The position numbers and the translations under genes are program-made. The notes under the pieces are model-generated. The model was not told where the DNA came from and ran no database searches. It saw nothing but the letters and a program-made list of their open reading frames with translations. From NCBI RefSeq assembly GCF_019047785.1, contig NZ_CP077290.1, positions 3,286,001 to 3,350,000 on the forward strand: DNA of 64,000 nt. The letters are read 5' to 3'. Positions 745 to 17,498 of the stretch are shown here, in pieces (the first letter of the stretch is position 1; the number at the start of each line of letters is the position of its first letter). This DNA comes from Enterobacter cancerogenus. GTDB taxonomy: Bacteria; Pseudomonadota; Gammaproteobacteria; Enterobacterales; Enterobacteriaceae.

Positions 745-2688
745 TTGAGTGACATGGCGAAAAACCTAATACTCTGGCTGGTCATTGCCGTTGTGCTGAT
801 GTCAGTATTCCAGAGCTTTGGGCCCAGCGAGTCGAATGGCCGCAAGGTGGATTATTCTACCTTCCTGCAGGAGGTCAATCAGGACCAGGTTCGCGAAGCG
901 CGTATCAACGGACGTGAGATCAACGTTACCAAGAAAGATAGTAACCGTTACACGACCTACATCCCGGTGAACGATCCTAAGCTGCTTGATAACCTTCTGA
1001 CTAAAAACGTCAAAGTGGTTGGTGAGCCGCCAGAAGAACCAAGCCTGCTGGCTTCTATCTTCATCTCCTGGTTCCCGATGCTGCTTCTTATTGGCGTCTG
1101 GATCTTCTTTATGCGTCAGATGCAGGGCGGCGGTGGCAAAGGTGCCATGTCGTTCGGTAAGAGCAAGGCGCGTATGCTAACGGAAGACCAGATCAAGACC
1201 ACCTTTGCCGACGTTGCAGGTTGTGACGAAGCGAAAGAAGAGGTGGGCGAGCTGGTTGAATACCTGCGCGAGCCGAGCCGTTTCCAGAAGCTGGGCGGTA
1301 AGATCCCGAAAGGCGTGCTTATGGTTGGCCCTCCGGGTACCGGTAAAACCCTGCTGGCGAAAGCCATCGCAGGCGAAGCGAAGGTGCCGTTCTTTACTAT
1401 TTCAGGTTCTGACTTCGTTGAAATGTTCGTGGGTGTCGGTGCATCTCGTGTGCGTGACATGTTCGAGCAGGCCAAGAAAGCAGCACCGTGCATTATCTTC
1501 ATCGATGAAATCGATGCCGTAGGCCGCCAGCGTGGCGCAGGCCTGGGCGGCGGTCACGATGAACGTGAACAGACGCTGAACCAGATGCTGGTTGAGATGG
1601 ACGGCTTTGAAGGTAACGAAGGTATCATCGTTATCGCGGCAACTAACCGTCCGGACGTTCTTGACCCTGCGCTTCTGCGTCCAGGTCGTTTCGACCGTCA
1701 GGTTGTGGTCGGTCTGCCGGATGTTCGCGGCCGTGAACAGATTCTGAAAGTTCACATGCGTCGCGTACCGCTGGCACCTGATATCGACGCGGCAATTATC
1801 GCGCGTGGTACCCCGGGCTTCTCCGGTGCGGACCTGGCGAACCTGGTCAACGAAGCGGCGCTGTTTGCTGCTCGCGGCAACAAGCGCGTCGTGTCCATGG
1901 TCGAGTTCGAAAAAGCGAAAGACAAAATCATGATGGGTGCGGAACGTCGCTCCATGGTGATGACGGAAGCGCAGAAAGAGTCCACGGCATATCACGAAGC
2001 AGGCCATGCGATTATTGGTCGCCTGGTACCGGAACACGATCCGGTGCATAAAGTGACGATTATTCCGCGCGGTCGTGCGCTGGGCGTGACGTTCTTCCTG
2101 CCGGAAGGCGATGCAATCAGCGCCAGCCGTCAGAAGCTGGAAAGCCAGATTTCGACCCTGTACGGTGGTCGTCTGGCGGAAGAGATTATCTACGGTGTGG
2201 AACATGTTTCGACCGGTGCGTCCAACGATATTAAAGTGGCGACAAACCTGGCGCGTAACATGGTGACTCAGTGGGGCTTCTCCGACAAACTCGGTCCGCT
2301 GCTGTATGCAGAGGAAGAGGGTGAAGTATTCCTGGGCCGTTCCGTCGCGAAAGCCAAACATATGTCCGATGAAACTGCACGTATCATCGACCAGGAAGTG
2401 AAAGCGCTGATCGAACGTAACTACGCTCGCGCACGTCAGATCCTGAACGACAATATGGACATCCTGCATTCGATGAAAGATGCGCTCATGAAATATGAGA
2501 CCATCGATGCTCCGCAGATTGACGACCTGATGGCACGTCGCGAAGTGCGTCCGCCAGCGGGCTGGGAAGACCCAGGCGCTTCCAACAATTCTGACAACAA
2601 TGGCACCCCGCGTGCACCGCGTCCGGTCGATGAACCGCGTACGCCAAACCCGGGTAACACCATGTCAGAACAGTTGGGCGACAAGTAA
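745..2688 (+). CDS. ftsH: ATP-dependent inner-membrane zinc metalloprotease FtsH
   Basis: FtsH is a hexameric AAA+ protease that degrades membrane proteins and regulators such as LpxC and sigma-32. Two N-terminal membrane segments (about residues 5-24 and 101-123) flank a periplasmic domain. The AAA domain follows with Walker A GPPGTGKT (residues 195-202), Walker [10 protein letters not shown] and the SRH region. The zinc protease site is HEAGH (417-421). The TTG at 745 has a GAGG ribosome site at suitable spacing. The in-frame ATG at 754 gives the 644-residue form used in E. coli annotation, so either start is possible. The C-terminal tail is close to E. coli. Confidence 0.97.
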
Positions 2689-2720
2689 GTCACTGCTGTT
2701 GATGCGTTTGTCTTAACTTC

Positions 2721-2753
2721 AAACCCTGGAGCTTGCTCCGGGGTTTTTCTTTT
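2721..2753 (+). terminator. Rho-independent terminator after ftsH
   Basis: A GC-rich hairpin (AACCCTGGAGC, TT loop, GCTCCGGGGTT) is followed by a T-rich run. It separates rlmE-ftsH from folP-glmM. Confidence 0.8.
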
Positions 2754-2787
2754 TCGCTAAACCATATAGATACCAGGGATTTTTGCC

Positions 2788-3636
2788 ATGAAACTTTTCG
2801 CCCAGGATTCGCATCTTGAACTCTCACATCCTCATGTGATGGGTATCCTGAATGTTACCCCTGACTCCTTCTCCGACGGCGGTACGCACAACACGCTTAT
2901 TGAGGCGGTTAAGCACGCGAATTTGATGATCAATGCGGGTGCCACCATCATTGATGTTGGCGGGGAGTCCACGCGTCCGGGGGCGGCGGATGTTTCAGTA
3001 GACGAAGAGTTGGCGCGCGTGGTGCCGGTGGTTGAGGCGATTGCGCAACGTTTTGAGGTATGGATTTCTGTCGATACATCAAAGCCTGAAGTGATTCGCG
3101 AAGTGGCGAGAGTGGGTGCTCACATCATCAATGACATTCGCTCGCTGACCGAGCCGGGCGCGCTGGAGGCGGCGGCAGAAACCGGTTTACCGGTGTGCCT
3201 GATGCATATGCAGGGGCAGCCGAAAACGATGCAGGAAGCGCCTAAGTACGACGATGTCTTTGCCGATGTAAATCGCTTCTTTATTGACCATATCGCACGC
3301 TGTGAACGTGCCGGCATCCCAAAAGAGAAATTGCTGCTCGACCCGGGGTTCGGTTTCGGTAAAAATCTTTCACACAACTATGCACTGCTTGCACGCTTGT
3401 CCGAATTCCATCATTTCGGCCTTCCGCTGCTGGTTGGTATGTCGAGAAAGTCGATGATCGGACAATTGCTGAATATCGGACCGAGTGAGCGTCTCAGCGG
3501 CAGCCTCGCTTGTGCGGTAATTGCAGCGATGCAGGGAGCACACATTATTCGCGTCCATGACGTAAAAGAAACAGTAGAAGCCATGCGCGTGGTAGAAGCC
3601 ACCCTGGCTGCCAAGGAAAACAAACGCTATGAGTAA
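2788..3636 (+). CDS. folP: Dihydropteroate synthase
   Basis: FolP condenses 6-hydroxymethyl-dihydropterin pyrophosphate with p-aminobenzoate in folate synthesis and is the sulfonamide target. The 282-residue length matches E. coli. The signatures [14 protein letters not shown] and [11 protein letters not shown] are present, with the phosphate-site region ending MSRKSMIG. Phe in the DSFSDGG loop and Pro in STRPGA are the usual sensitive-type residues, so no resistance change is visible. The stop overlaps the glmM start by 8 bases, which suggests coupled translation. Confidence 0.97.
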
Positions 3637-4966
3637 TCGTAAATATTTTGGTACCGATGGTATCCGTGGGCGCGTTGGCGATGCTCCAATCACTCCTGAT
3701 TTTGTTCTGAAGCTGGGTTGGGCGGCAGGTAAGGTGCTGGCGCGTCACGGCTCGCGTAAGATTATCATCGGTAAAGATACCCGTATTTCAGGCTATATGC
3801 TGGAATCTGCGCTTGAAGCAGGTCTGTCGGCTGCGGGGCTTTCCGCCTCCTTTACAGGCCCAATGCCGACGCCGGCCGTAGCCTATCTGACTCGCACCTT
3901 CCGCGCGGAAGCGGGGATTGTCATTTCAGCTTCGCACAACCCATTCTATGACAACGGCATCAAGTTCTTCTCCATCGATGGCACTAAGCTGCCGGATGAA
4001 GTTGAAGAAGCCATTGAAGCCGAAATGGAAAAAGAGATCACCTGCGTGGACTCCGCAGAGCTGGGTAAAGCGAACCGCATCGTCGATGCCGCTGGCCGCT
4101 ATATTGAGTTTTGCAAAGGCACCTTCCCGAATGAACTGAGCCTTGCCCACCTTAAAATCGTGGTGGACTGCGCCAACGGTGCGACCTACCACATTGCGCC
4201 AAACGTTTTCCGCGAGCTGGGTGCAAAAGTCATCACCATCGGCTGCGAGCCGGATGGCCTGAATATTAACGAAGAAGTTGGCGCGACGGACGTGCGTGCG
4301 CTGCAGGCGCGCGTGCTGGCTGAAAAAGCTGACCTCGGAATTGCGCTCGATGGTGACGGCGATCGCGTGATCATGGTCGACCACGAAGGCAACAAGGTCG
4401 ATGGCGATCAGATCCTCTACATCATTGCCCGCGAAGGGTTGCGTCAGGGCCAACTGCGCGGCGGCGCGGTCGGCACGCTAATGAGCAACATGGGTCTTGA
4501 GCTGGCGCTGAAACAGCTGGGTATCCCGTTTGTTCGCGCGAAAGTGGGGGACCGCTACGTGCTGGAGAAACTGCAGGAGAAAGGCTGGCGCATTGGCGCA
4601 GAAAACTCAGGTCACGTGATCCTGCTCGACAAAACCACCACCGGTGACGGCATCGTGGCGGGGCTGCAGGTGGTTGCGGCGATGGCGCGCAACCATATGA
4701 GCCTGCACGATCTGTGCAGCGGCATGAAGTTGTTCCCGCAGATCCTCGTCAATGTGCGTTTTACCGCCGGTAAAGGCGATCCGCTCGAAAATGAACAGGT
4801 GAAAGCGGTGATGGCGGAGGTTGAAGAAGCGCTCGGTAATCGTGGTCGCGTACTGTTGCGTAAGTCCGGTACCGAACCGTTAATCCGCGTTATGGTGGAA
4901 GGTGAAGACGAAGCGCATGTGACGGAATTAGCACATCGCATTGCGGATGCGGTGAAATCTGCATAA
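3629..4966 (+). CDS. glmM: Phosphoglucosamine mutase
   Basis: GlmM converts glucosamine-6-phosphate to glucosamine-1-phosphate for UDP-GlcNAc, and so for peptidoglycan and LPS. The 445 residues carry the phosphoserine loop VISASHNP with catalytic Ser102, the metal-binding loop DGDGDR, and the phosphate-binding [12 protein letters not shown] near the C-terminus. It forms an overlapping operon with folP. In E. coli K-12 secG follows directly. Here a 12-kb pilus locus intervenes. Confidence 0.97.
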
Positions 4967-4990
4967 ACCAGTAATATCGTTTTTTTGTTA

Positions 4991-5018
4991 AGGGGGCGAT
5001 TCAAATCGCCCTTTTTTA
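4991..5018 (+). terminator. Rho-independent terminator after glmM
   Basis: The stem GGGCGAT, loop TCAA, ATCGCCC is followed by six T residues and then a short (TA)n run. It closes folP-glmM and insulates the pilus operon. Confidence 0.85.
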
Positions 5019-5373
5019 TATATATATATCAGTGGTTTAAATATTTTTTTAAAATGCGATCGACAAGACACAAATAATGACATGATCATGTAATAATGTA
5101 ACTGCTTTTGTGAAAGTGGTATGATACTATTACAATATATTTCTGATTTTCTTGTTTCCTGTTGATCTTTCCTTTTTTAATTAATTCTTAATTATCTTTT
5201 AAATTAATATAGCTTGATTTAATTGGTTTGTTTATTTTTTATAGAGTTTATCCATAAATCTAAATTTATTCCTAATGTTTCCTATCTGCATATAAAATTT
5301 TAATTATTGTTCTTATAATTCGCTCCGTTCTCAGGAAGGGTCTTGGGAAGTTAAATATTTTAAGGGAAATAGA
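5019..5373 (+). promoter_or_regulatory. AT-rich upstream region and promoter of the pilus operon
   Basis: No gene is visible in these 355 bases, which are far richer in A and T than the flanking housekeeping genes. A promoter is readable: -35 TTGTGA (5108-5113), a 17-base spacer, and -10 TACAAT (5131-5136). It would give a leader of about 230 bases before the major pilin ATG at 5374. A perfect 12-base palindrome, ACATGATCATGT (5080-5091), lies just upstream of the -35 and could be an operator. A second -10-like TATAAT (5314-5319) has no good -35. The composition suits H-NS silencing, which is inference only. Confidence 0.6.
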
Positions 5374-6087
5374 ATGAATAGTCTGGTTTGGAAAATGAAA
5401 GGGAATATGAATCGCAAGGCAGCGAAATTACAAGAAATGAGAAAGCAGCGCGGTGTAACCCTGCTTGAAATCATTATCGTACTGGGCATTATCGGCGTTA
5501 TCGCCGCAGGCGTGGTTATTCTGGCACAGCGTGCATTTACCGCACAGGATCTGTCAGACATTCAGAACAATGCGAACAGCATCCGTACATCCATGACTGA
5601 AGCATTTAAAGATGAAGGCAGCTATCCTGAAGATAAAGGCGGTATCGTTGGTCTGACCAAGTCTACCATTGCTAAATCTACTCTGGATACGCCAATCGTA
5701 ACGCTGGTTAAACTGGGTAAAATCTCTCCAGACGAATCCTTCAACGGCGTTTCTAACGATGCGTTCCAGCTCACCAATGCAAAAATTGACGATACGACTT
5801 CCCAGAACAAAGCCTTTGTGCTGGTGGTAAACGGCCTGGAAACCGAAGAATGTCGTAACCTGATCTCCGAAATGGGCAACCAGTGGGATTACGTAGAAGC
5901 ACTGAAAGATGGTGCCAGTGCCGGTAAAACTGTTGCAAGTGTAACTGGTCGTAACCTGAGCGTAGCTAAGTCTGGAGCGATCCTGAAAACTCTGACTTCT
6001 GGTGAGATCGCAGCAGCAGACATCACTGCTACAGGTGTCTGTGATGGCGCTGGTGCAGTTAACGGCGTGATCTTCGGCAGCAAATAA
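5374..6087 (+). CDS. Major type IVb prepilin (TcpA/CofA-like)
   Basis: This is the likely main pilus subunit. The 237-residue precursor has a long, Lys/Arg-rich leader of 27 residues ending in Gly, then VTLLEIIIVLGIIG. Cleavage would give mature Val1 and the conserved Glu5, the type IVb pattern. The hydrophobic helix spans about residues 28-53. Only two cysteines occur (160 and 223), the place of the type IVb C-terminal disulfide loop. The ATG at 5374 is chosen for its AAGGGA site. ATGs at 5395 and 5407 would shorten only the leader. It is first in the operon and is followed by a very stable hairpin, fitting a highly expressed subunit. Type IVb class is secure; pilus type by sequence alone is inferred. 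Confidence 0.9.
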   Translation: MNSLVWKMKGNMNRKAAKLQEMRKQRGVTLLEIIIVLGIIGVIAAGVVILAQRAFTAQDLSDIQNNANSIRTSMTEAFKDEGSYPEDKGGIVGLTKSTIAKSTLDTPIVTLVKLGKISPDESFNGVSNDAFQLTNAKIDDTTSQNKAFVLVVNGLETEECRNLISEMGNQWDYVEALKDGASAGKTVASVTGRNLSVAKSGAILKTLTSGEIAAADITATGVCDGAGAVNGVIFGSK

Positions 6088-6102
6088 TTAAGTAACGTAT
6101 TT

Positions 6103-6128
6103 AGCACCCGCCCTTCGGGGCGGGTGCT
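6103..6128 (+). terminator. UUCG-capped hairpin between major and minor pilin genes
   Basis: A perfect 11-bp stem closes on a C(UUCG)G tetraloop directly after the major pilin stop. The following T tract is short and broken by G (TTTGTT), so it should be a partial terminator or a 3'-end stabiliser. Either would make pilin mRNA more abundant than the downstream assembly genes. Confidence 0.75.
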
Positions 6129-6161
6129 TTGTTAATGGTGCGATGGAAAGGGTATCAGTTA

Positions 6162-8183
6162 ATGCGTAGCAGAAAGGATTCAGGCTTCAGCTTGCTGGAA
6201 ATCATTATTGTGATGACTATCGCCGGTGGCGTTATGGTGATGTACACGCACTATGCGCGGAATAAAGCTGAAAACATAGCCCAGCAAAATGTTACGGACG
6301 CCATTGCTGAAGAGATGAAAGGAGTTCTCAACTTCATTGATGACGACACTATCGCCCTCGTTGGAACGAAAAACGAAAGAGATAATCCGCTTTACAGTGA
6401 TGTGGAACCTTTTTATGACGATTATCACCATCGAATCACCAATGAGATAAATGAAACCGATACAGATACTGAAGACAACTATTATTTGTGGGGTAATAGC
6501 AGTAGTAAAAACCAGCAGCAGCGCTATCTGTTTATAAGCAGCGCCTGTAAAACCTCTTTAAAATCAGAATTCGAATTCGAAAAAGAGTATTTGCCATGCT
6601 TTATGCGCAATGTGGCAACTAACTCCACGGCTGTCATAGACCGCGTGGGTTTTGCGACCGGTAATAACGATGAAGACTCCGATCGTAAATATGATATCAA
6701 CCGCATCGATGTGATCGTCCGCTTCAAAAAAGAAGAGACAAACAGCGACTATCACTTTGCTGATTTAACACCGCATTTTAACGAGGCCTTTGCAAAGGCG
6801 GGTTTCGCGGTATCGCATTCGATTGTCGTACACCGCAAGAACAGTTCATCTGACTGGCAGCTGGTACTGAAGAAGAAGGACAATACAACCCCTGTCGAGT
6901 TGAGCAGCTTAGGCAGCAACCTTGATGCGCTGGATCAGTACAAAAAAGACGAATTCGGCGTGCGCTTTACCATTGACACCAATGATAACTCCAGCAACAG
7001 CAGCAATATGGGCGGTAAGGTATGCTGGACCCGCGGCGATAGCGGCGTGAAGCTTTGTTACGATGATAATCCGGGCACCGGTGAGCGTGGCGAAGACACG
7101 GTGCTGGCGCTCAATATGACCGACCCGGACAATCCGCGTGGTGAAAAAGTCATGACGGGGACCTTAAAGGCGAACGTTGTCATGGAAAATACCGCTTCTC
7201 GGGTGAATATTTTTCAACGTTCAGGGGGCAGTTTAAAATTTGACTCGGACGGTAATCCGTTACCTTTGCATCGTAAAGATAAGAACGGCGACCGTTATAC
7301 GGTTGAACTTTCAGGCAGTGATTCGGAAGGCGGCTTCTACAATGCCGAGGAAAGTGCGGATGGTGGTTTCGAATTAGATACTCCTGACTATCCAGACGCT
7401 GCTTTTGACGCTTATGAATTAGTGACGCCTGCCGTCACGGCGTACAGTGAAAAAGGTCATATAACAAATAATCAGCAGGGTATTAACCTCAACCATCGCG
7501 CTGGAGATGGCCAGAATTTTGATAATGATGATGATGATGACATTAATATTACTGAATATGATGACAATGCACATAACCCAGCCCATGTTCTGGATAATAT
7601 ACACACGTCACAAGGTTATTACGATTCCAATGGCGGGGGGTATCGTTATGCGGTACAAACCTGTCCTCAGGTAGAGCAAGATATTGTGCTTCGTGATGCA
7701 AGGGGTAATCCACTGCGCGATGAAAACGGAAAGGTAAAAACCTATAAATACGCCAGGAAATTATACCCGAGAATGACTGCCTCTATTTCATCCGTTGCAG
7801 CGTATCGGGCAACGGCAATAAAAAATGGTGTTATTCCCAATGGTTTTTATGCGTCAGATAAAACCAGGCAGGGCCTGAGTGAACACGACGAAAATGACGA
7901 GGTGGGCTCGCTTACGGGACTTGCGGTGCAGGTTGAAATTGCAGAGCAGGGTCGTCGCTCAAGTGACAATTTTTTTGTGACTGGGGGGTCGCACCATTTA
8001 TATAGCAATTTAAAATATGTATGGGTTATCTCTGGCATTATGAGAATGTATGATGAAAAAACAGCAACCACCTATGACGTACTGAACCCGGGTACCGCTT
8101 CTTACGTTTTTCATACGTGGTGTAGCACCATTCCTCAGGATGGTACGCCTGCAGATATACTAGATACTCAGCAATACCAATAA
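6162..8183 (+). CDS. Very long type IV minor pilin, possible tip protein (TcpB/CofB position)
   Basis: The N-terminus MRSRKDSG then FSLLEIIIVMTIAG is a class III signal with Glu5, so prepilin peptidase should process it. The chosen ATG (6162) has an AAAGGG site; in-frame upstream starts overlap the hairpin. At 673 residues it is larger than TcpB or CofB, as I recall those. Six cysteines fall as plausible pairs: 129/146, 288/299 and 501/654. The middle is rich in Asn, Asp and Ser, with a short Asp run near residues 454-460. Position after the major pilin matches TcpB/CofB, which sit at the pilus tip and act in assembly and retraction. The C-terminal half is not recognised and could carry binding activity, which is inference. 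Confidence 0.8.
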   Translation: MRSRKDSGFSLLEIIIVMTIAGGVMVMYTHYARNKAENIAQQNVTDAIAEEMKGVLNFIDDDTIALVGTKNERDNPLYSDVEPFYDDYHHRITNEINETDTDTEDNYYLWGNSSSKNQQQRYLFISSACKTSLKSEFEFEKEYLPCFMRNVATNSTAVIDRVGFATGNNDEDSDRKYDINRIDVIVRFKKEETNSDYHFADLTPHFNEAFAKAGFAVSHSIVVHRKNSSSDWQLVLKKKDNTTPVELSSLGSNLDALDQYKKDEFGVRFTIDTNDNSSNSSNMGGKVCWTRGDSGVKLCYDDNPGTGERGEDTVLALNMTDPDNPRGEKVMTGTLKANVVMENTASRVNIFQRSGGSLKFDSDGNPLPLHRKDKNGDRYTVELSGSDSEGGFYNAEESADGGFELDTPDYPDAAFDAYELVTPAVTAYSEKGHITNNQQGINLNHRAGDGQNFDNDDDDDINITEYDDNAHNPAHVLDNIHTSQGYYDSNGGGYRYAVQTCPQVEQDIVLRDARGNPLRDENGKVKTYKYARKLYPRMTASISSVAAYRATAIKNGVIPNGFYASDKTRQGLSEHDENDEVGSLTGLAVQVEIAEQGRRSSDNFFVTGGSHHLYSNLKYVWVISGIMRMYDEKTATTYDVLNPGTASYVFHTWCSTIPQDGTPADILDTQQYQ

Positions 8184-8214
8184 GTATATATTATGATAAT
8201 GGAATATAAATAAT

Positions 8215-8655
8215 ATGAATATTATTAAATGTAATAAATGGACAATGGCAGGCATATTGTTGTGTAGCATGAGCTATGCCCATGCATCGATGAATACATC
8301 ACCTGCGGTGGAACCCTCTACTAATGCAGCAACGCCTGTAGTGGAAAAAACGCCGCGCAATCCCTTTACATCGGAAAGTGTCGTTTCACCGGTTTATTCA
8401 TCTTCAGTCGCTTCGCTGGTATTGCAGGAAAACGAGTTGTTAAGTCAGGCTATCAAGCAGTGGGCTGAAAGCAATCACTATAAGCTGTTCTGGAACAGTA
8501 AAAAGGATTATTTGATTTACAACACCATAACCCTCAGTGGGAAAACGGATGATGATATTCTGCAATCATTGGGAGATCTCTTTTTCTCCGAGAATTATGG
8601 TTTGGTCGTTAAAAAGTACGAAAAAAACCACGTGATTGTTGTCGATGAAATGTAA
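8215..8655 (+). CDS. TcpQ-domain periplasmic protein (secretin partner)
   Basis: The 146-residue product has a signal peptide ending near SYAHA, a Pro/Thr/Ser-rich linker, and a C-terminal domain (about 70-146) resembling the TcpQ/PilL C-terminal family, with LLSQAIKQWAESNHYKLFW and a final VIVVDEM strand. In the TCP system TcpQ stabilises and places the outer-membrane secretin TcpC. The next gene here is the secretin, in the same order. Domain assignment is by pattern from memory and is fairly firm; the partner role is inferred. Confidence 0.75.
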   Translation: MNIIKCNKWTMAGILLCSMSYAHASMNTSPAVEPSTNAATPVVEKTPRNPFTSESVVSPVYSSSVASLVLQENELLSQAIKQWAESNHYKLFWNSKKDYLIYNTITLSGKTDDDILQSLGDLFFSENYGLVVKKYEKNHVIVVDEM

Positions 8656-8668
8656 GTGGATGGAACCC

Positions 8669-10129
8669 ATGAAACTGAAAACAGGTGTATTGCTGTTAGC
8701 TTTCCTTGCGCAAGGATGCATGAGTGATTTTGAGAAAAATTATGACGTGCCTAAAAAACTAAATGAACAAACTTCAGATTCGACCACACTAGATGAAGCG
8801 AAGACGAAGCCTTACGTAAAATACGACTCGGCCTATTTAGGCAAAAAAGTGCAGTATAGCGTTGAGCAGCAAAAGATAATGGGTAAGCATGTGAAGATTA
8901 CTTCATATGAGCCAACAACGTTATCAGCACTGATGGAAATTGTGGCAGCACAGACCGGCACGAGTTATCGCATCAACGCCTCTGCAACCGGTGACAAAAA
9001 AGCCAGTGCGGATGATGACTCCTGGGATGTCCCGCGTTCGGTACAGTTTGACGGTAACTTCGAAGACTTTATGAAGTACATCGGCTCGCTCTATGATGTT
9101 AGTCCTACGCTGGATACCAACAACGTTCTCAAAATTAACGTTTTTGACACCTATGTCATGCGTCTCGATTTTTATGGCGAAAATAACAAAACTGAAACCA
9201 CGCTTGATCTCTCTGGAAACGAGGCGACGTCAGGCGGTGGCCTGACCGGGAAATCCGAAACTAAATTCGAGTCCTCTTTCTGGGATGACGTAGAGACGAT
9301 GGCAAAAAACTACGTTACGTCAGGCAACTATACCTTGTTCAAAGATTCATCTATTTTGATGGTCAATTCACGTCCGTCCGAACATGAGTCACTGAGTAAA
9401 GCGCTGGATAAATATAAATCCGATAACAGCCGTCAGTTTATCGTGACGTATCGTATTTATATCCTTGATAAAGAGAAAGAAAAAACGCTGGCGGGTGGGT
9501 TGAACTTCAATTTCTCTGATTTGCATAACACCGTCAATATCAGCGGGAGCGTCCTGAATAACCTGGCCGGTGGGATCACGGCAGGGTGGAAGAACAGCCA
9601 TGTTGATATCAGCACCGGTCTGGATGCACTGTACAAATTAACGGGGAGCGAGTCGCTGCAAAGTGGTTCATTTATTACCCGCAATAATATGGCGATCCCG
9701 GTCAACATGACCCAGTCTCAGTACTACGTTTCCAGCAGAACGCGTACAACGGATGATACGGGTGAGGTGAACGTAGAAGTAAACACCGATGAAATAGTGA
9801 CTGGCACCAGCTTTATCATTACCCCACGCGTGTTGTCCGATGGGCGTATTGAGGTGGTGAGTGGGTTTACTAAACGCTTCCTGAACTCTCTGGATGAGTA
9901 TGATGAAGTGCAGCTGCCAAACGTGAGTACTACAGAGTCGTTCAACTCTTCCATCATTAAGCCGGGTGACTTGCTGGTAGTAGGAAAATTTGAAGTGAAG
10001 ACCAGTAAAAACGGCTTGCAGTATGAAGTGTTAGGTGCCAGCGACAATGACTCCAGCGGCGTAGCGACAGTCCTAATGGTGGTCGGGGTTGATTATTATC
10101 GTCAGCCAATCACTTCACGCGATGAGTGA
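8669..10129 (+). CDS. Outer-membrane lipoprotein secretin of the type IVb pilus (TcpC/CofD/PilN/BfpB-like)
   Basis: This should form the outer-membrane ring through which the pilus exits. The ATG at 8669 gives MKLKTGVLLLAFLAQG then Cys17, a lipoprotein-type signal with a non-ideal lipobox (AQGC); ATGs at 8645 and 8660 are alternatives. The 486 residues show an N-terminal domain, a ring-building domain near residues 60-160, and a C-terminal secretin domain with TSFIITPRVLSDGRIEVVSGF and SIIKPGDLLVVGKFE. Length and organisation fit the PilN/TcpC/BfpB branch. The gene slightly follows the TcpQ-like gene, and its stop overlaps the next GTG. Confidence 0.87.
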   Translation: MKLKTGVLLLAFLAQGCMSDFEKNYDVPKKLNEQTSDSTTLDEAKTKPYVKYDSAYLGKKVQYSVEQQKIMGKHVKITSYEPTTLSALMEIVAAQTGTSYRINASATGDKKASADDDSWDVPRSVQFDGNFEDFMKYIGSLYDVSPTLDTNNVLKINVFDTYVMRLDFYGENNKTETTLDLSGNEATSGGGLTGKSETKFESSFWDDVETMAKNYVTSGNYTLFKDSSILMVNSRPSEHESLSKALDKYKSDNSRQFIVTYRIYILDKEKEKTLAGGLNFNFSDLHNTVNISGSVLNNLAGGITAGWKNSHVDISTGLDALYKLTGSESLQSGSFITRNNMAIPVNMTQSQYYVSSRTRTTDDTGEVNVEVNTDEIVTGTSFIITPRVLSDGRIEVVSGFTKRFLNSLDEYDEVQLPNVSTTESFNSSIIKPGDLLVVGKFEVKTSKNGLQYEVLGASDNDSSGVATVLMVVGVDYYRQPITSRDE

Positions 10130-10683
10130 ATGGCTTAGTTATGAACGATATTTTATTTAAAAATAACATATTAACCGGGCTCTACTGGGAGCCCGAAAGC
10201 CTGGAAAATCTGCAACCGGCCGAGCAGGCGTCATTCCGCGGGATGATGAAAGCCTATCGCAGACTGGTATATAAAGATGGCGCGGGGCAGATGGCAATTG
10301 GTTACAGTACTAAGATATCCACCCTTTACGAACCTTTTGCACTTTATATTAAAGAGCTTTATGGCGATGGCATCTACTTCTCTCACGAGAACGATCTAAC
10401 GACATATTTTTTGATAATTAATGAAGGGCGTATTGTCAGCGGTACGGACTGTTTCGTGAGTAAAGAGCTTTTTGACGAGCTGATGAAACACCAGGATGCA
10501 TACAATCATTTGGAAGTCACCCCTCTGGAAGAGATCCAGATTAATGCCGTTGTTGAGCGCTGTTGTGCCAGGCAGGCACGCCTGAAGCGCCGGCGCCGCA
10601 TCATTATCGGCTCTATTTTTTCGAGTGGGATTGCGTTTTTGACGGTTTTGGCATTGTTGCTTCATATTTTTGTGACGGGATAA
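10126..10683 (+). CDS. Small inner-membrane pilus assembly protein (TcpR position)
   Basis: The product (185 residues from GTG 10126, 180 from ATG 10141) has a soluble N-terminal region, an Arg/Lys-rich stretch (RLKRRRR), and one C-terminal membrane helix (about residues 160-182). This predicts a cytoplasmic domain anchored at its C-terminus. The phrase INEGRIVSGTD recalls the N-terminal part of PilO-type accessory proteins. It occupies the TcpR/CofE place between secretin and TcpD-like genes. The GTG overlaps the secretin stop (GTGA), implying coupling. I do not recognise a specific activity; a role in the assembly complex is inferred from place. Confidence 0.65.
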   Translation: MNGLVMNDILFKNNILTGLYWEPESLENLQPAEQASFRGMMKAYRRLVYKDGAGQMAIGYSTKISTLYEPFALYIKELYGDGIYFSHENDLTTYFLIINEGRIVSGTDCFVSKELFDELMKHQDAYNHLEVTPLEEIQINAVVERCCARQARLKRRRRIIIGSIFSSGIAFLTVLALLLHIFVTG

Positions 10684-10686
10684 CGT

Positions 10687-11601
10687 ATGCTGGAAGGAAT
10701 GTATTTCTGGAAAGATAAAAATGGCTCAGTTTCAAAAGCGAAGCTGGTGCTGGGTTTTCTTTTGATTGCGATATTGATTCTCGGCGGTTGCGCGGGTGGT
10801 TGGTATTATTTCGTGATGCTTCCCGATGAAAAAGCGAAAGAAGAAGCTATTGCAAGGCAACAGCAGGCAGCTCAGAAGTTAAGGGATGATATTGAAGCCG
10901 TTAAGAAATTCTATACCAGTTCTCTGACGGGTGGCGGTATTGATGAAACCGTATTACTGCTCGATGAAGTTAAGAAAAGTAATGAGAAACTGTCGATCAT
11001 TCCTTTGGAAAAATATTCATTTGTATGCGATCCCAAAAGCTGTAAGTTCTCATATGCCCTAAAAAAGGGGGCGCTTTGGATACTTCCTCAAAAGTCATTC
11101 TGGGATAAGACATACAACCCCACCGCTTTAGCAACGGGGAATAAGAAATCTGGCGGTAAGGATAAAATGGATTTTCAGTACGATAAGATTGAGTCGAGAC
11201 TTAATAATAATAAGTATCTGAAAGAGTATGACAGCAAAAAGCCGCTGAAACTTTATCCTTGTAGCGATGTAGTTTCTTATATCATGACCTTCAATTCGAT
11301 GGTGAAAAAAGAAGGGGGAGGTAAGAAAAACCTTGATCAGGTCGTGATAAAAAAAATGCCAACTTCCTCCGTGAATGACCTTGAGTCAACGCTTTCAGGA
11401 AAAGTAAAAGCATACGGCTTGCAGGTGGGGAAATGGGAGCTGGAAATTAAGAAAGACGAAAGTTCGTTATCAATTGATGATATGACGAACATGCAATTAT
11501 TACTTTATAAGCAGGCGTATCGCGATGCGTTTATCGTTAATAAAGTTGAGACGAAAGACAAGGGACTGATAGTTTCAGGAGGACTGGTATGCAAAAAGTA
11601 A
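10687..11601 (+). CDS. Bitopic inner-membrane pilus assembly protein (TcpD position)
   Basis: The 304-residue protein has a short cytoplasmic N-terminus, one membrane helix (about 19-44), a charged coiled-coil-like segment (about 47-75), and a periplasmic domain containing FVCDPKSCKFSY and a later Cys pair. The layout resembles the periplasmic half of PilO/TcpD/BfpC proteins. With the preceding C-terminally anchored protein, the two resemble one PilO split in two, which is inference. It overlaps the next gene by 13 bases. Confidence 0.65.
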   Translation: MLEGMYFWKDKNGSVSKAKLVLGFLLIAILILGGCAGGWYYFVMLPDEKAKEEAIARQQQAAQKLRDDIEAVKKFYTSSLTGGGIDETVLLLDEVKKSNEKLSIIPLEKYSFVCDPKSCKFSYALKKGALWILPQKSFWDKTYNPTALATGNKKSGGKDKMDFQYDKIESRLNNNKYLKEYDSKKPLKLYPCSDVVSYIMTFNSMVKKEGGGKKNLDQVVIKKMPTSSVNDLESTLSGKVKAYGLQVGKWELEIKKDESSLSIDDMTNMQLLLYKQAYRDAFIVNKVETKDKGLIVSGGLVCKK

Positions 11602-12275
11602 AGTCAATGGTAATGGTCGGTGCGCTAACGTTCATTGTTGGTGCTGCTGAAGCGGCTCCCGCAACCGAACAACCCCCGGTACTGTCAAAAAAAATGCAGA
11701 AGGTTGTTGATGACGTTGTCTCAGGGAAAAGTGAAAAAGGCCAAAACACGCAGAGCGCCGTAGCCGCCACGCCAAAAGCGCAAGCGAATGCCTCTGGCTC
11801 TGTAGCTGCCAAACAGGAAACATTCACGTCCTCTTTGGAAGACAAGGATCCGTTGGTGCCATCGGGAGACGCCGAACAAGACAAGGCGGATAACACGGCG
11901 AGTATCCAGGATCGACTGGCGTCAATGGCCGAAGAAGATTATGCCTTTGAACAAATGCGACGCAAGCTTGCAAATCTGGTAGAACTTGAAAAATTGCGTA
12001 GTGAAATTGTCAAGCTCCGTGGCGAAGATAAAATCAAAACCACGCCAGCGACTTCTGCCTCAGCGTCTAAGGGGCAAATATCAGCATCTGCAAGGTCTGA
12101 AACGCCGCGCGTTGTTCTGGAAGCGGATATCGGTGGTGCGAATCGCGTTGCCGTAATGAGCGGAAATACGCTTAGCTATGTTCGCCCGGGTGAAACGTTC
12201 ACCGTGGGCAATATCAAATACAAGCTGTCGAAAGACAGGAAGTCAGTCGTTATGGCAGAGGATGCTGTGCAGTGA
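11589..12275 (+). CDS. Periplasmic TcpS/PilP-like pilus assembly protein
   Basis: A signal peptide is clear (MQKVKSMVMVGALTFIVGAAEA, cleavage near AEA/AP, split here for display only). A low-complexity Ala/Ser/Thr/Gln-rich linker follows, then a heptad-like helix around residues 115-145 (MRRKLANLVELEKLRSEIVK) and a compact C-terminal domain with VRPGETFTVGNIKYKLS. This is the plan of PilP/TcpS proteins that link the inner-membrane complex to the secretin. A GGAGG site lies upstream within the previous gene. The stop overlaps the ATPase GTG. Confidence 0.68.
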   Translation: MQKVKSMVMVGALTFIVGAAEAAPATEQPPVLSKKMQKVVDDVVSGKSEKGQNTQSAVAATPKAQANASGSVAAKQETFTSSLEDKDPLVPSGDAEQDKADNTASIQDRLASMAEEDYAFEQMRRKLANLVELEKLRSEIVKLRGEDKIKTTPATSASASKGQISASARSETPRVVLEADIGGANRVAVMSGNTLSYVRPGETFTVGNIKYKLSKDRKSVVMAEDAVQ

Positions 12276-13810
12276 AAATGGACTTTACGCGTATTTCAGC
12301 CGACGAATTACTCGCTGGGAAATGGACTTACCAGGAATTTGAGGGAATTGGCTTTACGGCAACAGCTGAAGAGCGCGATTACCTGGTGGTGAATACGCTC
12401 GGCATTGAAAACCTGTTTGAATATCAGATCCAGGTATCAAGGCTGATTTCTCAGCACAAGCGTCAGGTCGAAGGCCTGGCGCTTGTCGCCGAGGAAGATT
12501 ATTACCGGATTATTGAGCATGTTTCATTAAAACAGCTTAATGACGCGAGTAAAAATATTGATATTACCGACACTCAGAAGCGACTGGCGGCTATCCTCCA
12601 GCGCGTCGTGAGTATGGGCGCGAGCGACTTACATATAACGCGCAATGATGTGCTGGCGCTCTTTGAAGCCCGCGTGAATGGGGTGTTGATGCCCTTTATG
12701 CAGCTCAAATCTCAGCTTTGCGATGAGCTGGTGTTCGTCCTCTATAACGTAGAAGCGACGACTCGCGATACGACCTGGAACCGTGCAATTCCGCAAAACG
12801 CTAACATTCTTTATAACCTGTCCGGTAAGCCTTACCGCTTCCGTTACGCGCACTTCCCGATCTTTGGTGAAACGGCGGATTGTTACCATGCGGTATTGCG
12901 TATTATTCCATCAGGTCTCCAGAAGGGGAATATTGGCTCACTGGATAAGATCGGTATATCGGATGAAGAAGTGGCGGATCTGAAAAAGATCCTCAGTAAT
13001 CCCTATGGTGCATACGTTATCGCCGGTACGACAGGTTCAGGGAAATCCACCACGCTTAAAAATTTGATGGAGTGGTTGCAGATCAACCGCTATGAAGACC
13101 GCGGTTGCTTCCTGACTGTAGAAGATCCGGTGGAATATCAGATTTACGGGGCGAAGCAGAGTTCCGTGGTGGATGTCTCGGGTGGTGGGTTCCACGCCGC
13201 AATTAAATCCGCTCTGCGCCGCGATCCGGATGTGCTGATGGTGGGGGAGATCCGTGACAACATTTCTGCTAATGCCCTGGCGGGTGCGGTCGAAAGTGGT
13301 CACTACTGCTTCACTACGGTTCATGCCGGTAACATCGTCTCATTGCTGCAGCGTATGTCTGCGTTAGGGATCGGTAGCGACAAAATGTCCACTCCGGGCT
13401 TTATTGCCGGCTTGCAGTGCCAAAAGTTGGTTCCCGTGCTGTGCGAAAACTGCAAAACCGTCATGGGCACCAAAACCATTTCCGGGCGAGAGTTTACCCT
13501 CTATACCGCAGGGGAGGGTGGGTGCGAACAGTGTCGTCAGAGCGGGATCAAAGGACGCCAGCTGGCGATGGAATACTTCCTGCCGACCTACGAAGAGTTA
13601 GCCGCAATTTCTAAGCAGGAATGGCTGAACGTATACACGCTTTGGCGTAAAAAACGTGCTGCGGCGCAGGGGTTAGCTGAAGGGTTTGAAATTCGTGAAA
13701 AGGTCATGGCGCATGTCCTCAAGGGACGTATTGATGCTGCATGGTTTGCCATGGAATTTGGCGCAATGAAGGATGAAGATCTGGAGATGATCGTTGAAAA
13801 AATTCGGTAA
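12272..13810 (+). CDS. Pilus assembly ATPase, GspE/PilB superfamily (TcpT/CofH-like)
   Basis: This is the cytoplasmic secretion ATPase that powers pilus extension. The 512 residues contain Walker A GTTGSGKS (252-259), Asp box EDPVE (284-288), Walker B VLMVGEIRD (321-329), a His box TTVHAG with His351, and a zinc-binding tetracysteine set (C391, C394, C418, C421). All motor motifs are present, so it should be active. The GTG at 12272 overlaps the previous stop; ATG at 12278 is an alternative. No second, PilT-type retraction ATPase occurs in the cluster, as in TCP. Confidence 0.93.
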   Translation: MKMDFTRISADELLAGKWTYQEFEGIGFTATAEERDYLVVNTLGIENLFEYQIQVSRLISQHKRQVEGLALVAEEDYYRIIEHVSLKQLNDASKNIDITDTQKRLAAILQRVVSMGASDLHITRNDVLALFEARVNGVLMPFMQLKSQLCDELVFVLYNVEATTRDTTWNRAIPQNANILYNLSGKPYRFRYAHFPIFGETADCYHAVLRIIPSGLQKGNIGSLDKIGISDEEVADLKKILSNPYGAYVIAGTTGSGKSTTLKNLMEWLQINRYEDRGCFLTVEDPVEYQIYGAKQSSVVDVSGGGFHAAIKSALRRDPDVLMVGEIRDNISANALAGAVESGHYCFTTVHAGNIVSLLQRMSALGIGSDKMSTPGFIAGLQCQKLVPVLCENCKTVMGTKTISGREFTLYTAGEGGCEQCRQSGIKGRQLAMEYFLPTYEELAAISKQEWLNVYTLWRKKRAAAQGLAEGFEIREKVMAHVLKGRIDAAWFAMEFGAMKDEDLEMIVEKIR

Positions 13811-14822
13811 AAAACAGCGTCTGTACCTCTATCAGTTTTGTGCCGATATGATTAGCGCAGGCTTACCGCTTTTCGATTCGCTGCAAAAGTTGCAAACCGA
13901 AGGACGCACGCTCCTTGGTAAAGGGTTCAGTGATAAACTGGGCGCGGTTATCCTGCAGATGAAGCAGGAGGTGTCGGTGTCAGCAGTATTTTCTGACGTA
14001 GTCCCTAACTCTGAACTGAGTGTGATTACCGCGGCAGAAAAAAGCGGAAGCCTCGCGGAGGGTTTTCTAACACTGGTCGCCGTGATTAAATACAATGATG
14101 AACTGCGTAAAAAAATCGTCGGCGCAATGATCTTCCCTCTGATCATGATCACTTTGTCGCTGATTGTTATTGCGGGTTATTCACAAAAAGTATTCCCTGC
14201 CTTCGCCTCGGTAGTTCCGGTGGAAAAATGGCCGGGCGTTACCCAGAATTTATATAATTTTGGTACAGCGTTATATCAAGGGTTGTGGATTAAGATCCTG
14301 GTTGGTTTTATTACTTTTGTTTTCTTATCCAAATTTGCTATGGCAAACCTGAGTGGCAATGTTCGTAATAAAATCTTTGATAAAGTTCTACCGTTTTCAA
14401 CCTACAGGCAGCTTGCGTCTTCCGTATTTTTGAATAACCTGGCGCTGATGCTCAGTAACAGCATTCCGCTGACTGACTCTTTACATATTGTACGTCTAAA
14501 TGCAAACCGCTGGTTGCGTTGGCATATTGATGTCATGAATGACAAAATGGCTCAGGGGGTTCACTATAGTAAGGCACTCTCGACGGGCTTACTCGGCAAA
14601 GAAGAGTTACTGAACATTAGCCTGTATGCGGAACTTCCCTCGTTCAATGAGGTATTGCGTTCGGTCTCAGATCGTTCACGCGATCATATTCAGGAATATA
14701 TTAAAAAACTGGCGGGTTTATTGAAAAACCTGGCCACGGTCGTCCTGGGGGGCTGCGTTGTGTGGGTCTTCATAGCGTTATTTGCATTAATGGATACGCT
14801 CTCCAAAACGGCAGGGGGTTAA
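13794..14822 (+). CDS. Inner-membrane platform protein, GspF/PilC superfamily (TcpE/CofI-like)
   Basis: The 342-residue protein has two T2SS-F type repeats, each starting with a soluble helical part (AGLPLFDSLQKLQ near the N-terminus; LMLSNSIPLTDSLHIV in the second half). Membrane helices lie around residues 107-128, 164-182 and 312-335. It should couple the ATPase to pilin extraction from the membrane. Translation probably starts at TTG 13794 inside the ATPase gene, since GGAG lies about 8 bases upstream. A 17-base overlap indicates coupling. Confidence 0.88.
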   Translation: MKKFGKKQRLYLYQFCADMISAGLPLFDSLQKLQTEGRTLLGKGFSDKLGAVILQMKQEVSVSAVFSDVVPNSELSVITAAEKSGSLAEGFLTLVAVIKYNDELRKKIVGAMIFPLIMITLSLIVIAGYSQKVFPAFASVVPVEKWPGVTQNLYNFGTALYQGLWIKILVGFITFVFLSKFAMANLSGNVRNKIFDKVLPFSTYRQLASSVFLNNLALMLSNSIPLTDSLHIVRLNANRWLRWHIDVMNDKMAQGVHYSKALSTGLLGKEELLNISLYAELPSFNEVLRSVSDRSRDHIQEYIKKLAGLLKNLATVVLGGCVVWVFIALFALMDTLSKTAGG

Positions 14823-14968
14823 GATATAAAAATGTCAAATGGTTTTACAGAGAAAAGTAGCTATTTGGCATTATTGATTTGAATGATGGATGTTGCGGAA
14901 AATACTTACTTCAACTGACGTCTCGCTATTTCGTCGTGAAGATGCATTTTAGTTAAAGGATATGTTTA
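14823..14968. other. Gap between platform and peptidase genes, TcpF/CofJ position
   Basis: This is the only sizeable gap inside the assembly genes. It holds no convincing gene. A 16-codon frame (ATG at 14832, starting MSNGFTEKSSYL) is too short and lacks a clear ribosome site. In TCP and CFA/III the secreted factor tcpF or cofJ lies at this point between the platform and peptidase genes. An AAAGGA site for the peptidase lies at the right end. Confidence 0.5.
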
Positions 14969-15805
14969 ATGCGCCTGGAAGCGTTTTTCGCCCCCTGGTT
15001 CCCCTGGCTTGCCTTAGGGTTAGGGCTACTGATTGGCAGTTTTCTTAACGTTGTGATTTATCGTCTGCCCGTCATGCTCTTTCGGGAGTCGGCGGACGAT
15101 GAAACGCTGAAAACCTTACCCAATGTCAATCTCTGGTGGCCGCCGTCGCACTGCCCATTGTGTCAAACGTTGATTAAACCCTGGGATAACATCCCTGTGT
15201 TGAGCTGGGTACTGCTGCGTGGTAAATGTCGCTGCTGCAAAAGCGCGATCCCTTTCCAGTACCCTATAAGTGAAGGGTTGATCGGCATTGGATACTTTTT
15301 ACTGGTCTTTTGCTACTACCCACAGCATAGCCTCATCCAGATTGCGTTCGTGGCGTTATTTTTTAGCCTGCTCTATACCCTGGCGATGATCGATATCAAG
15401 ACCTTTCTTCTGCCAGATAGCCTCGTCTATATGCTTCTCTGGGCAGGTCTGATCGCCTCTGTCAGAAATATCATTCCCGTTTCACCACGCGATAGCGTGA
15501 CAGGTGCCGCTTTTATTTGGGTATTCAGTTGGGTGATGGCAAAAGGATTTACGTGGGTCACCCGGCGGGAAGGATTTGGTAATGGCGACGTAAAACTCTT
15601 TGCGGCCTGTGCGGCGTGGATTGGCAGCGAGCACATCGGGCAATTAATGCTGGGTTCGGCTTCGCTGGGGGCATTGTTCTTTTTTGTGCGCTGGGGTATC
15701 CGTTTCCGTTCCCAAAAAGCAGATGATGCGGGGGGATATATCCCGTTCGGCCCTGCAATTGCCATTACCGCTATCATCATTATGCACATGGAGGTGCTAA
15801 ATTAA
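14969..15805 (+). CDS. Prepilin peptidase / N-methyltransferase (TcpJ/CofP/PilD-like)
   Basis: This inner-membrane aspartic protease should cleave the two prepilins and methylate their new N-termini. The 278 residues carry the N-terminal GSFLNVVIYRLP signature, the cytoplasmic zinc loop CPLC (62-65) and CRCC (87-90), and catalytic Asp142 in AMIDIKTFLLPD and Asp207 in GFGNGDVKL. Both catalytic aspartates are intact. Multiple hydrophobic segments follow. It is one base overlapped (TAATG) with the next gene. A dedicated peptidase makes the locus largely self-sufficient. Confidence 0.93.
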   Translation: MRLEAFFAPWFPWLALGLGLLIGSFLNVVIYRLPVMLFRESADDETLKTLPNVNLWWPPSHCPLCQTLIKPWDNIPVLSWVLLRGKCRCCKSAIPFQYPISEGLIGIGYFLLVFCYYPQHSLIQIAFVALFFSLLYTLAMIDIKTFLLPDSLVYMLLWAGLIASVRNIIPVSPRDSVTGAAFIWVFSWVMAKGFTWVTRREGFGNGDVKLFAACAAWIGSEHIGQLMLGSASLGALFFFVRWGIRFRSQKADDAGGYIPFGPAIAITAIIIMHMEVLN

Positions 15806-16959
15806 TGTCTTATATGCTTTTATCCGGTCTGCTGTTAACGATGCATCCTGCTTCTACGCACGGTGCTGAGTGCTATTATCCGGTGTCTCATCACCTGTCG
15901 CAAATTCTGCTATCAAAGGAATATGACCCAGACTTTCAGCCGTTTAAGTCATCAGAGCCAGAACTGTGCTGGAATGATCTTAAAGAAGAGAGTTACCTGA
16001 GCGTATCCGATATCAGGACCTGGCTGGCAACTCATCTACCACCGACGCAAGAATATGATTCAGCAGGCGTTGCGACGACACTCATCAGCGCGCCTTTTGA
16101 ACCGGCGTCTCTGCTGGTGGAGGCTCAGGAAGACCTGTCGGCGGAAGTGATATCTGATGACGCTTCCGATGAGGAGAACCTGCCCGTCGATGGTGGAGAG
16201 GCAACGAGCAGCGTATTCTCGGTAATGAACGCGACAATTCCGACCACGAGTGCCCCGGCACCCGTCTGGAGACCGTTGCTCAGCCAAAAAGCGAGGGGGC
16301 AGCATTTCGTCTTCCCGTTGCGCGCCGAGCCCGTGGTGACCTCTCCGTTTGGTATGCGTTATCACCCCATCATCCATACTTTCATGCGTCATGAGGGGGT
16401 AGATCTTCGCGCGGCGCTAAACAGTGAGGTCATGTCTATTGCAGACGGCATGGTGACAGAAACTGGTTATGGGCCGGTTACGGGTCTGTATATGACGATT
16501 CGCCATCCTGACGGCTGGAGTAGTCGTTATCTGCATCTGAATAAACTGCTGCTGGTCAAAAATCAGTATGTACAAAAGGACGATGTGATTGCGCTGTCCG
16601 GGAATACTGGCCGCACAGACGGGCCTCATCTGCATCTTGAAATTATTCATGATGACAAGCTGCTCGATCCCATGACACTCCTTTTTGAGCCTGCCGGGGA
16701 AAAAGATGCGCATCCGGCATTACAGGTCGTATCCGAATCGTTACCAGCTCCAGAACCTGTCGATATGACGCCGAAAATTGCGGTAATCGCTGGCGAAGGC
16801 GAATCATTACAAATCGGCGTGCGGACTGGGCGTAAAATGACGATGTATTCTCCACAGGAAATCGTCGAAACGGATGAAGGTAACTGGCGTATCGTGAGTA
16901 AATTTGGCAAATACAAGCTGCAAAAAATGGATCAAGCCCTTTCGAAGGCAACTAAATAA
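15805..16959 (+). CDS. Exported M23-family metallopeptidase of the pilus locus
   Basis: A signal peptide (residues 1-20, ending THG) leads a region with two cysteines (23, 55), an acidic Ser/Thr-rich linker (about 100-150), and an LytM/M23 domain. Zinc ligands and catalytic residues are intact: His196 and Asp200 in RHEGVDL, His244 in RYLHL, and His275/His277 in GPHLHLE. It probably cuts peptidoglycan cross-bridges, opening the wall for the pilus machine. It starts with GGAGGT and TAATG coupling to the peptidase gene. TCP-type loci more often carry a lytic transglycosylase. The C-terminal 90 residues are unassigned. Confidence 0.85.
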   Translation: MSYMLLSGLLLTMHPASTHGAECYYPVSHHLSQILLSKEYDPDFQPFKSSEPELCWNDLKEESYLSVSDIRTWLATHLPPTQEYDSAGVATTLISAPFEPASLLVEAQEDLSAEVISDDASDEENLPVDGGEATSSVFSVMNATIPTTSAPAPVWRPLLSQKARGQHFVFPLRAEPVVTSPFGMRYHPIIHTFMRHEGVDLRAALNSEVMSIADGMVTETGYGPVTGLYMTIRHPDGWSSRYLHLNKLLLVKNQYVQKDDVIALSGNTGRTDGPHLHLEIIHDDKLLDPMTLLFEPAGEKDAHPALQVVSESLPAPEPVDMTPKIAVIAGEGESLQIGVRTGRKMTMYSPQEIVETDEGNWRIVSKFGKYKLQKMDQALSKATK

Positions 16960-17006
16960 CATTTTTCGATTGGATTTCTGAGTTTTATGGTCACTTTAAA
17001 TTCATT

Positions 17007-17165: not shown

Positions 17166-17498
17166 ATGTACGAAGCTCTTTTAGTTATTTTCCTTATTGT
17201 AGCCATCGCTCTTGTAGCGCTGATCATGCTGCAGCAAGGCAAAGGCGCTGATATGGGAGCCTCCTTCGGAGCAGGCGCTTCCGGTACGCTGTTTGGTTCA
17301 AGTGGTTCTGCGAACTTCATGACCCGTACAACTGCGATTCTGGCTACGCTGTTCTTCATCATCAGTCTGGTGCTGGGCAATATCAACAGCAACAAGACCA
17401 GTAAAGGAAGCGAGTGGGAAAATCTGAGTGCTCCGTCTAAAACTGAGCAGACTCAGCCAGCTGAACCGGCTAAGCCGACCAGCGACATCCCACACTAA
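17166..17498 (+). CDS. secG: Protein translocase subunit SecG
   Basis: SecG is the small partner of SecYE in the inner-membrane translocon. The 110-residue protein begins MYEALLVIFLIVAIALV, has the conserved MLQQGKGADMGASFGAG loop, and a second membrane helix near residues 50-72. The start at 17166 has an AAGGA site and matches the E. coli N-terminus. leuU follows 9 bases after the stop, so the two are probably cotranscribed. Confidence 0.96.
   Translation: MYEALLVIFLIVAIALVALIMLQQGKGADMGASFGAGASGTLFGSSGSANFMTRTTAILATLFFIISLVLGNINSNKTSKGSEWENLSAPSKTEQTQPAEPAKPTSDIPH

What the first reader, a model, noticed from the sequence alone, without database searches (positions are those of the whole stretch)
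5019..16960. A V. cholerae TCP-like type IVb pilus operon between glmM and secG
Eleven same-strand genes, several overlapping, encode a nearly complete pilus machine. Gene order is pilin, minor pilin, TcpQ-like, secretin, TcpR-place, TcpD-place, TcpS/PilP-like, ATPase, platform, prepilin peptidase, the order of tcpA-B-Q-C-R-D-S-T-E-(F)-J and of CFA/III cof. glmM and secG are neighbours in E. coli K-12. No integrase, transposase or attachment repeats were seen, so the locus may be a stable genus-level feature rather than a recent island. TCP, CFA/III and longus are colonisation factors, so host attachment or biofilm is a plausible role.
Basis: partly seen in the sequence, partly recalled or inferred. 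Interest (0 to 1): 0.85.

Follow-up and report, generated by a model that had tools for sequence, protein, structure and literature searches.

The report
Gut-type pilus with empty cargo slot
This is a complete-looking set of genes for a hair-like surface fibre of a kind that gut bacteria use to settle in a host; it is a new relative of known systems, unusual because the protein that such fibres carry out at their tip is missing from the gene set.

The parts
3629..4966 (+). glmM, left flank (not part of the pilus)
   Evidence: PGM_PMM domains; next to secG in 55 of 58 pilus-less genus genomes
4990..5015 (+). terminator-like hairpin after glmM, left edge of the variable site
   Evidence: a like hairpin is seen in empty sites
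5019..5373 (+). AT-rich leader region with no assigned gene; a promoter is presumed, not shown
   Evidence: sequence; 5 promoter-like matches against 2.8 expected, so no evidence of a promoter
5374..6087 (+). A: major pilin (CofA/TcpA type); 27-residue leader if the start is 5374, Glu at position 5 of the mature protein (read by eye)
   Evidence: TcpA and N_methyl in Pfam; best solved relatives CFA/III and TCP pilins; 40% to cofA
6162..8183 (+). B: tip minor pilin (CofB type), 673 aa, conserved base and variable distal part
8215..8655 (+). C: TcpQ/CofC family
   Evidence: PF10671; 50% to cofC
8669..10129 (+). D: outer-membrane secretin, 486 aa, with a lipoprotein-type signal (LAQGC, read by eye)
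   Evidence: 44% to cofD over the length; start seen
10141..10683 (+). E: CofE-place protein
   Evidence: 28% to cofE; no Pfam hit
10687..11601 (+). F: CofF-place protein
   Evidence: 25% to cofF
11589..12275 (+). G: CofG-place protein (TcpS/PilP place), overlaps F
   Evidence: 37% to cofG over 119 aa
12278..13810 (+). H: assembly ATPase (CofH/TcpT place)
   Evidence: T2SSE E 4e-78; 64% to cofH
13794..14822 (+). I: inner-membrane platform (CofI), overlaps H
   Evidence: T2SSF; 57% to cofI
14823..14968 (+). empty cargo slot: 146 bp where relatives encode the CofJ-like secreted protein
   Evidence: no convincing remnant
14969..15805 (+). P: prepilin peptidase (CofP)
   Evidence: A24_N_bact and Peptidase_A24; 41% to cofP
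15805..16959 (+). M23 metallopeptidase, presumed cell-wall cutting enzyme of the pilus
   Evidence: PF01551 E 2e-24; an M23 relative follows P in 18 of 26 loci compared, one contig counted twice
17166..17498 (+). secG, right flank (not part of the pilus)
   Evidence: PF03840

Best explanation
A functional type IVb pilus of the CofB branch (CFA/III and its kin, with Citrobacter Cfc), lying between glmM and secG. The prepilin peptidase P trims pilin A and minor pilin B; ATPase H and platform I polymerise A under a tip of B; the fibre leaves through secretin D, with C, E, F and G as envelope parts, and the M23 enzyme opens the cell wall. No second ATPase gene lies in the operon, so retraction would be B-triggered, as proposed for TCP. 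In relatives the B tip carries a CofJ-like protein out of the cell. In the window's group this cargo gene is not in the operon: two relatives encode one elsewhere, and in this genome the tip either works alone or uses a cargo not recognised here. Shown: genes, order, open frames, distribution, empty slot, unlinked J genes, purifying selection between two relatives. Inferred: assembly, secretion, tip binding of the unlinked J, host or surface attachment.
For: Ten genes colinear with cof. Pilin and tip-pilin homology and fold. Purifying selection between the two genus relatives: dN/dS 0.017 for H, 0.025 E, 0.028 I, 0.045 D. Slot J filled in 7 of 7 glmM-site loci outside the genus, empty in 3 of 3 inside (with for the window). 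The J family has an aromatic motif near the start of the presumed mature protein, YGF in 4 of 8 slot proteins, YRF in 2, YGL and FGF in 1 each, close to the 'YGF' secretion-signal clade of PMC9565799, and its predicted fold has CofJ as best match. In the family sample J rang in 9 of 392 genomes, all 9 among the 21 with CofB_pilin_dom; 8 of these 9 supplied the profile, so what counts is that none of the 371 others rang. In the genus J rang in 2 of 3 pilus-bearing and 0 of 58 other genomes (Fisher p 0.0016, but the two are close relatives and so hardly independent).
Against: No expression, pilus or secretion data. No match to cofR, cofS or cofT in the window, so regulation is unexplained. Lower G+C than the flank (40-51% per gene against 54-56% in folP and glmM) could go with silencing. 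J was not found in this genome, so the cargo part may not apply to it. Binding of J to B in the relatives is untested. Two database entries of 431 and 453 aa cover only 63-64% of B, so the gene may be broken in some strains.
Confidence: 0.85

Rival explanations
1. The tip works without cargo in the window's strain: B alone is the adhesin or sensor, and the J gene is gone for good.
For: No J in the own genome with three profile searches (E up to 10) and one protein search; both sites used by relatives are without it here (33 bp between the nlpE and proS matches, about 333 bp between the gst and selA matches); no J match better than E 0.03 in the window; B is the longest of the 10 glmM-site copies (672 aa from the aligned start against 622-660).
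Against: J proteins diverge fast (19-60% identity), and the profiles miss J types of other lineages (e.g. L058, L060 match nothing). itself warns that an empty answer without a positive control shows nothing; searches had controls that rang. Near relatives kept J.
Confidence: 0.45
2. A highly diverged or different cargo protein is encoded elsewhere in this genome and rides the B tip.
For: Relatives G014 and G050 hold J at two different chromosomal places, 46-47% identical; proteins of that type are also listed from Enterobacter cloacae, E. chuandaensis and E. asburiae; the distal part of B keeps its CofB-like fold in the model.
Against: Nothing was found in this genome; no candidate can be named.
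Confidence: 0.4
3. The locus is a type II secretion or competence system.
For: GspE, GspF, GspH and GspG models match parts of the ATPase, platform and pilins.
Against: All far below the curated cut-offs (e.g. GspE 174 of 630 bits); cof gene order; CofB-type tip; three other T2SSE-family genes over the cut-off lie elsewhere in the genome.
Confidence: 0.03
4. A silent or decaying genomic island with no present function.
For: Patchy, lower G+C, no cof-type regulator in the window.
Against: All eleven frames open; strong purifying selection on the machine genes in two relatives.
Confidence: 0.1

Closest known systems
CFA/III (cof) of Escherichia, with longus (lng) as a recalled relative not compared here
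   Different: cofR, cofS, cofT and cofJ without match; M23 peptidase added; chromosomal glmM-secG site instead of a plasmid; tip protein 673 aa against 523 aa in the compared plasmid
Colonisation factor Citrobacter (Cfc) of Citrobacter rodentium
   Same: A C. rodentium tip pilin entry is 41% identical over 100% of the query (P0066; that it belongs to cfc is my inference); slot proteins of glmM-site relatives carry YGF or like motifs, as reported for C. rodentium, Enterobacter mori and E. cloacae (PMC9565799)
   Different: C. rodentium locus not fetched or compared gene by gene; J slot empty here
[quoted passage not shown]
   Different: More distant than CFA/III by pilin and tip; the TcpF place is empty; not compared gene by gene

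Membership tests
Type IVb pilus of the CofB branch | Major pilin of TcpA/CofA type | tested here: met
Type IVb pilus of the CofB branch | Minor pilin with CofB pilin domain and CofB-like distal part | tested here: met
Type IVb pilus of the CofB branch | TcpQ/CofC, secretin, ATPase, platform and own prepilin peptidase in cof order | tested here: met
Type IVb pilus of the CofB branch | Pilus filament on cells, retraction | not testable with these tools
   needs microscopy
CFA/III itself | cofR, cofS and cofT before the pilin | tested here: not met
   best matches in the window E 0.18, 1.7 and 1.8; present in L091 (R, S, T) and, as S and T, in L042
CFA/III itself | Secreted CofJ between platform and prepilin peptidase | tested here: not met
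   146 bp gap with no ORF of 60 aa listed there on the + strand; no remnant; best cofJ match in the window E 0.03, elsewhere
TCP | A secreted-protein gene (TcpF) at the place before the peptidase | tested here: not met
   TcpF itself was not compared
TCP | Closer to TCP than to CFA/III | tested here: not met
Cfc of Citrobacter rodentium | Same gene content, with J in the operon | not tested
   C. rodentium locus not fetched; only a tip pilin entry compared, 41%
Type II secretion or competence | Curated equivalog scores for Gsp or Com proteins | tested here: not met

The most novel reading that the evidence does not exclude
In this Enterobacter/Lelliottia/Huaxiibacter-type branch the tip cargo has been uncoupled from the pilus operon: the operon is a fixed launcher with an empty cargo slot and a fast-changing tip, while cargo genes sit alone at changing chromosomal places (nlpE-proS in one genome; gst-selA in another that also keeps a 29-residue remnant at nlpE-proS) and are exported in trans by the same pilus. 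Cargo and tip would then be swapped like cartridges, and the window's strain would have a launcher that has lost its cartridge.
Probability: 0.45. Interest if true: 0.62.

Novelty: new variant of a known kind. Interest (0 to 1): 0.45.

Why it matters
Type IVb pili of this branch are known mostly from gut pathogens (recalled, and PMC9565799). Here one lineage sits at a single chromosomal site across six genera of a family. The J genes found outside the operon in two relatives are natural material to test whether a type IVb pilus recognises its cargo in trans, and whether tip and cargo change together. The published survey picked cargo genes by operon position (passage of section 18 of PMC9565799), so unlinked ones would have been missed.

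Tried and rejected
Recent mobile island: no border repeat, no near match in E. coli genomes (whole locus) or plasmids (H-I only). Simple vertical inheritance: the folP-glmM tree and the H-I tree agree on four groups but not on the place of L044/L045; the pilus data reject the flank grouping (p-AU 0.0002), the flank data reject the pilus grouping only just (0.045); the groups were named after seeing the trees. Idea that J-less systems have longer tip proteins: true in two J-less groups (window group; L052/L056/L057), not in two others (L050/L054; L055); dropped. J remnant in the 146 bp slot: only chance-level matches. Seeming high secG identity to relatives: secG is conserved throughout the genus, median 94.6% of 58 rows, some genomes counted twice. 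Class-wide search for CofB_pilin_dom: 1 of 369 genomes, the window's own; the sample is thin and unnamed, so it says little. Solved-structure sequence search with J: no hit. J in Pfam: two chance-level hits. RNA families in the locus: only the tRNA beyond secG. Literature: the listings showed no paper on a pilus between glmM and secG or on unlinked CofJ/TcpF genes; most subscription papers are not held. Papers seen: PMC9565799, passages and sections 10 and 11; PMC3401170, PMC3511308 and PMC12300476, passages; the rest as listings. The type IVb pilus of PMC3401170 is screened there by pilQ, pilV and rci on an ICE, a different branch by my judgement.

Rows dropped or special: the window itself was not among the 26 loci (it was tested); L033 is the same contig as L049; L034 and L059 are contig fragments whose site cannot be told. 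In one search, L121-L123 repeat L065, L062 and L063, leaving 58 genomes; L117's 422 bp gap is an alignment end effect (its stretch holds the end of glmM and the start of secG). The D row is an artefact of a start codon and was redone. In one search only the 8000 candidates sharing most words were scored, and 33 of its 72 hits went into alignment A3.

Full report
What is there. The window holds eleven open same-strand ORFs between glmM and secG. Seven pass a Pfam cut-off. Against the cof genes of an Escherichia albertii plasmid (annotated) ten match one to one in the same order: A 40%, B 26%, C 50%, D 44%, E 28%, F 25%, G 37%, H 64%, I 57%, P 41%. The eleventh, an M23 peptidase, has no cof counterpart. 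cofR, cofS, cofT and cofJ have no match in the 64 kb window (best E 0.18, 1.7, 1.8 and 0.03, the last away from the locus). D's start at 8669 gives what by eye is a lipoprotein signal.

How widespread. ATPase: 3 of 61 genus genomes, own included. CofB_pilin_dom: 21 of 392 family genomes, own included, in 15 of 154 genera. Of the 26 loci compared, nine lie between glmM and secG; with the window that makes ten, in six genera by the tool's genus numbers (g1, g10, g57, g77, g126, g143). In the D+H+I protein tree these ten are one clade (SH-aLRT 100, quick method), so most simply the site was entered once. The tree of flanking folP-glmM DNA shares the groups window+L031+L037, L031+L037, L041+L043 and L044+L045, but places L044+L045 elsewhere; the conflict is strong on the pilus side only. 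I read this as old residence with some exchange between lineages, probably by recombination in the flanks, and many losses; independent gains by such exchange are not excluded. In the genus, 58 pilus-less genomes were looked at: 55 have glmM and secG about 226 bp apart. In G034 and G041 glmM is followed by other genes and secG is not reached within 18 kb: type VI secretion genes in G034 (VipB, TssF, VasE families and an AAA/ClpB-type ATPase), and like ORFs in G041 (not profiled). G053 has an insert of about 2.4 kb before secG. The pilus insert lies between the glmM terminator and the secG leader.

Unlinked cargo. A profile of eight slot proteins, run on 12 genomes, found J elsewhere in G014 and G050 but not in the own genome nor in the six genomes with an empty slot at other sites. 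The two J proteins are 46-47% identical. Related proteins come from E. cloacae, E. chuandaensis and E. asburiae, species names that also hold near tip pilins, but I could not show that they are the same strains, nor whether the genes are unlinked there. In the genus J rang in 2 of 3 pilus-bearing and 0 of 58 other genomes. In the family it rang in 9 of 392, all with CofB_pilin_dom and by coordinates inside the pilus loci; 8 of the 9 supplied the profile, so the information lies in the silence of the others. The own genome gave none at E up to 10 or 5, and both alternative places are without it.

Tip variation and selection. Between window B and six Enterobacter-like relatives (P0018, P0019, P0020, P0022, P0024, P0025), residues 1-280 are 77-81% identical but 351-500 only 33-38%; P0016 and P0017 keep 62-66% there. 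Between L031 and L037, dN/dS is 0.05 for B 1-280 and 0.23 for the rest; for H, E, I and D 0.017-0.045; for A 0.26. The machine is under strong constraint and the distal tip changes fast. dS between window and L037 is saturated for most pilus genes, so no ratio is given.

Cell-wall enzyme. An M23 relative follows P in the glmM-site loci and in L049, L051, L052, L053, L056, L057, L058 and L035; a CofT-like enzyme was seen in L042, L055, L060 and L091; neither was detected in L050 and L054. The two enzymes seem to replace each other; that they serve the pilus is inferred.

Verdict. A real, probably working type IVb pilus of a known branch, at a shared variable site, with a cargo-less operon that is new to me and to the literature searches made here. 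Host colonisation is a fair guess from Cfc and CFA/III (Cfc's role in C. rodentium virulence is stated in a passage of PMC3511308), not a result.

Noticed in passing
L124:1-18338 and L126:1-18338 (G034, G041): Type VI secretion genes (profiled in L124, like ORFs in L126) follow glmM in two genomes of the genus where others have secG, so the place may be a general slot for surface or secretion machines.
   Followed up: partly
L125 (G053), about 1340-3780: An insert of about 2.4 kb between glmM and secG, with what by eye looks like a transposase fragment.
   Followed up: no
L052, 15996-17177 in the operon's orientation: A 393-residue secreted-looking protein follows the M23 gene in a pilus locus whose J slot is empty; it may be a cargo gene moved to the operon's end.
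   Followed up: no
L135:1492-1590 (G050): 29-residue remnant of a J gene next to nlpE, where the related genome G014 has a whole one.
   Followed up: partly
L050 and L054: Pilus loci of this branch with no J gene in the slot and neither M23 nor CofT-like enzyme detected nearby.
   Followed up: no
J-slot proteins of L051, L053, L035, L058: By eye the start of the mature protein looks more like the SxGGAFT (CofJ-type) signal than YGF, so the signal type may differ between site lineages.
   Followed up: no
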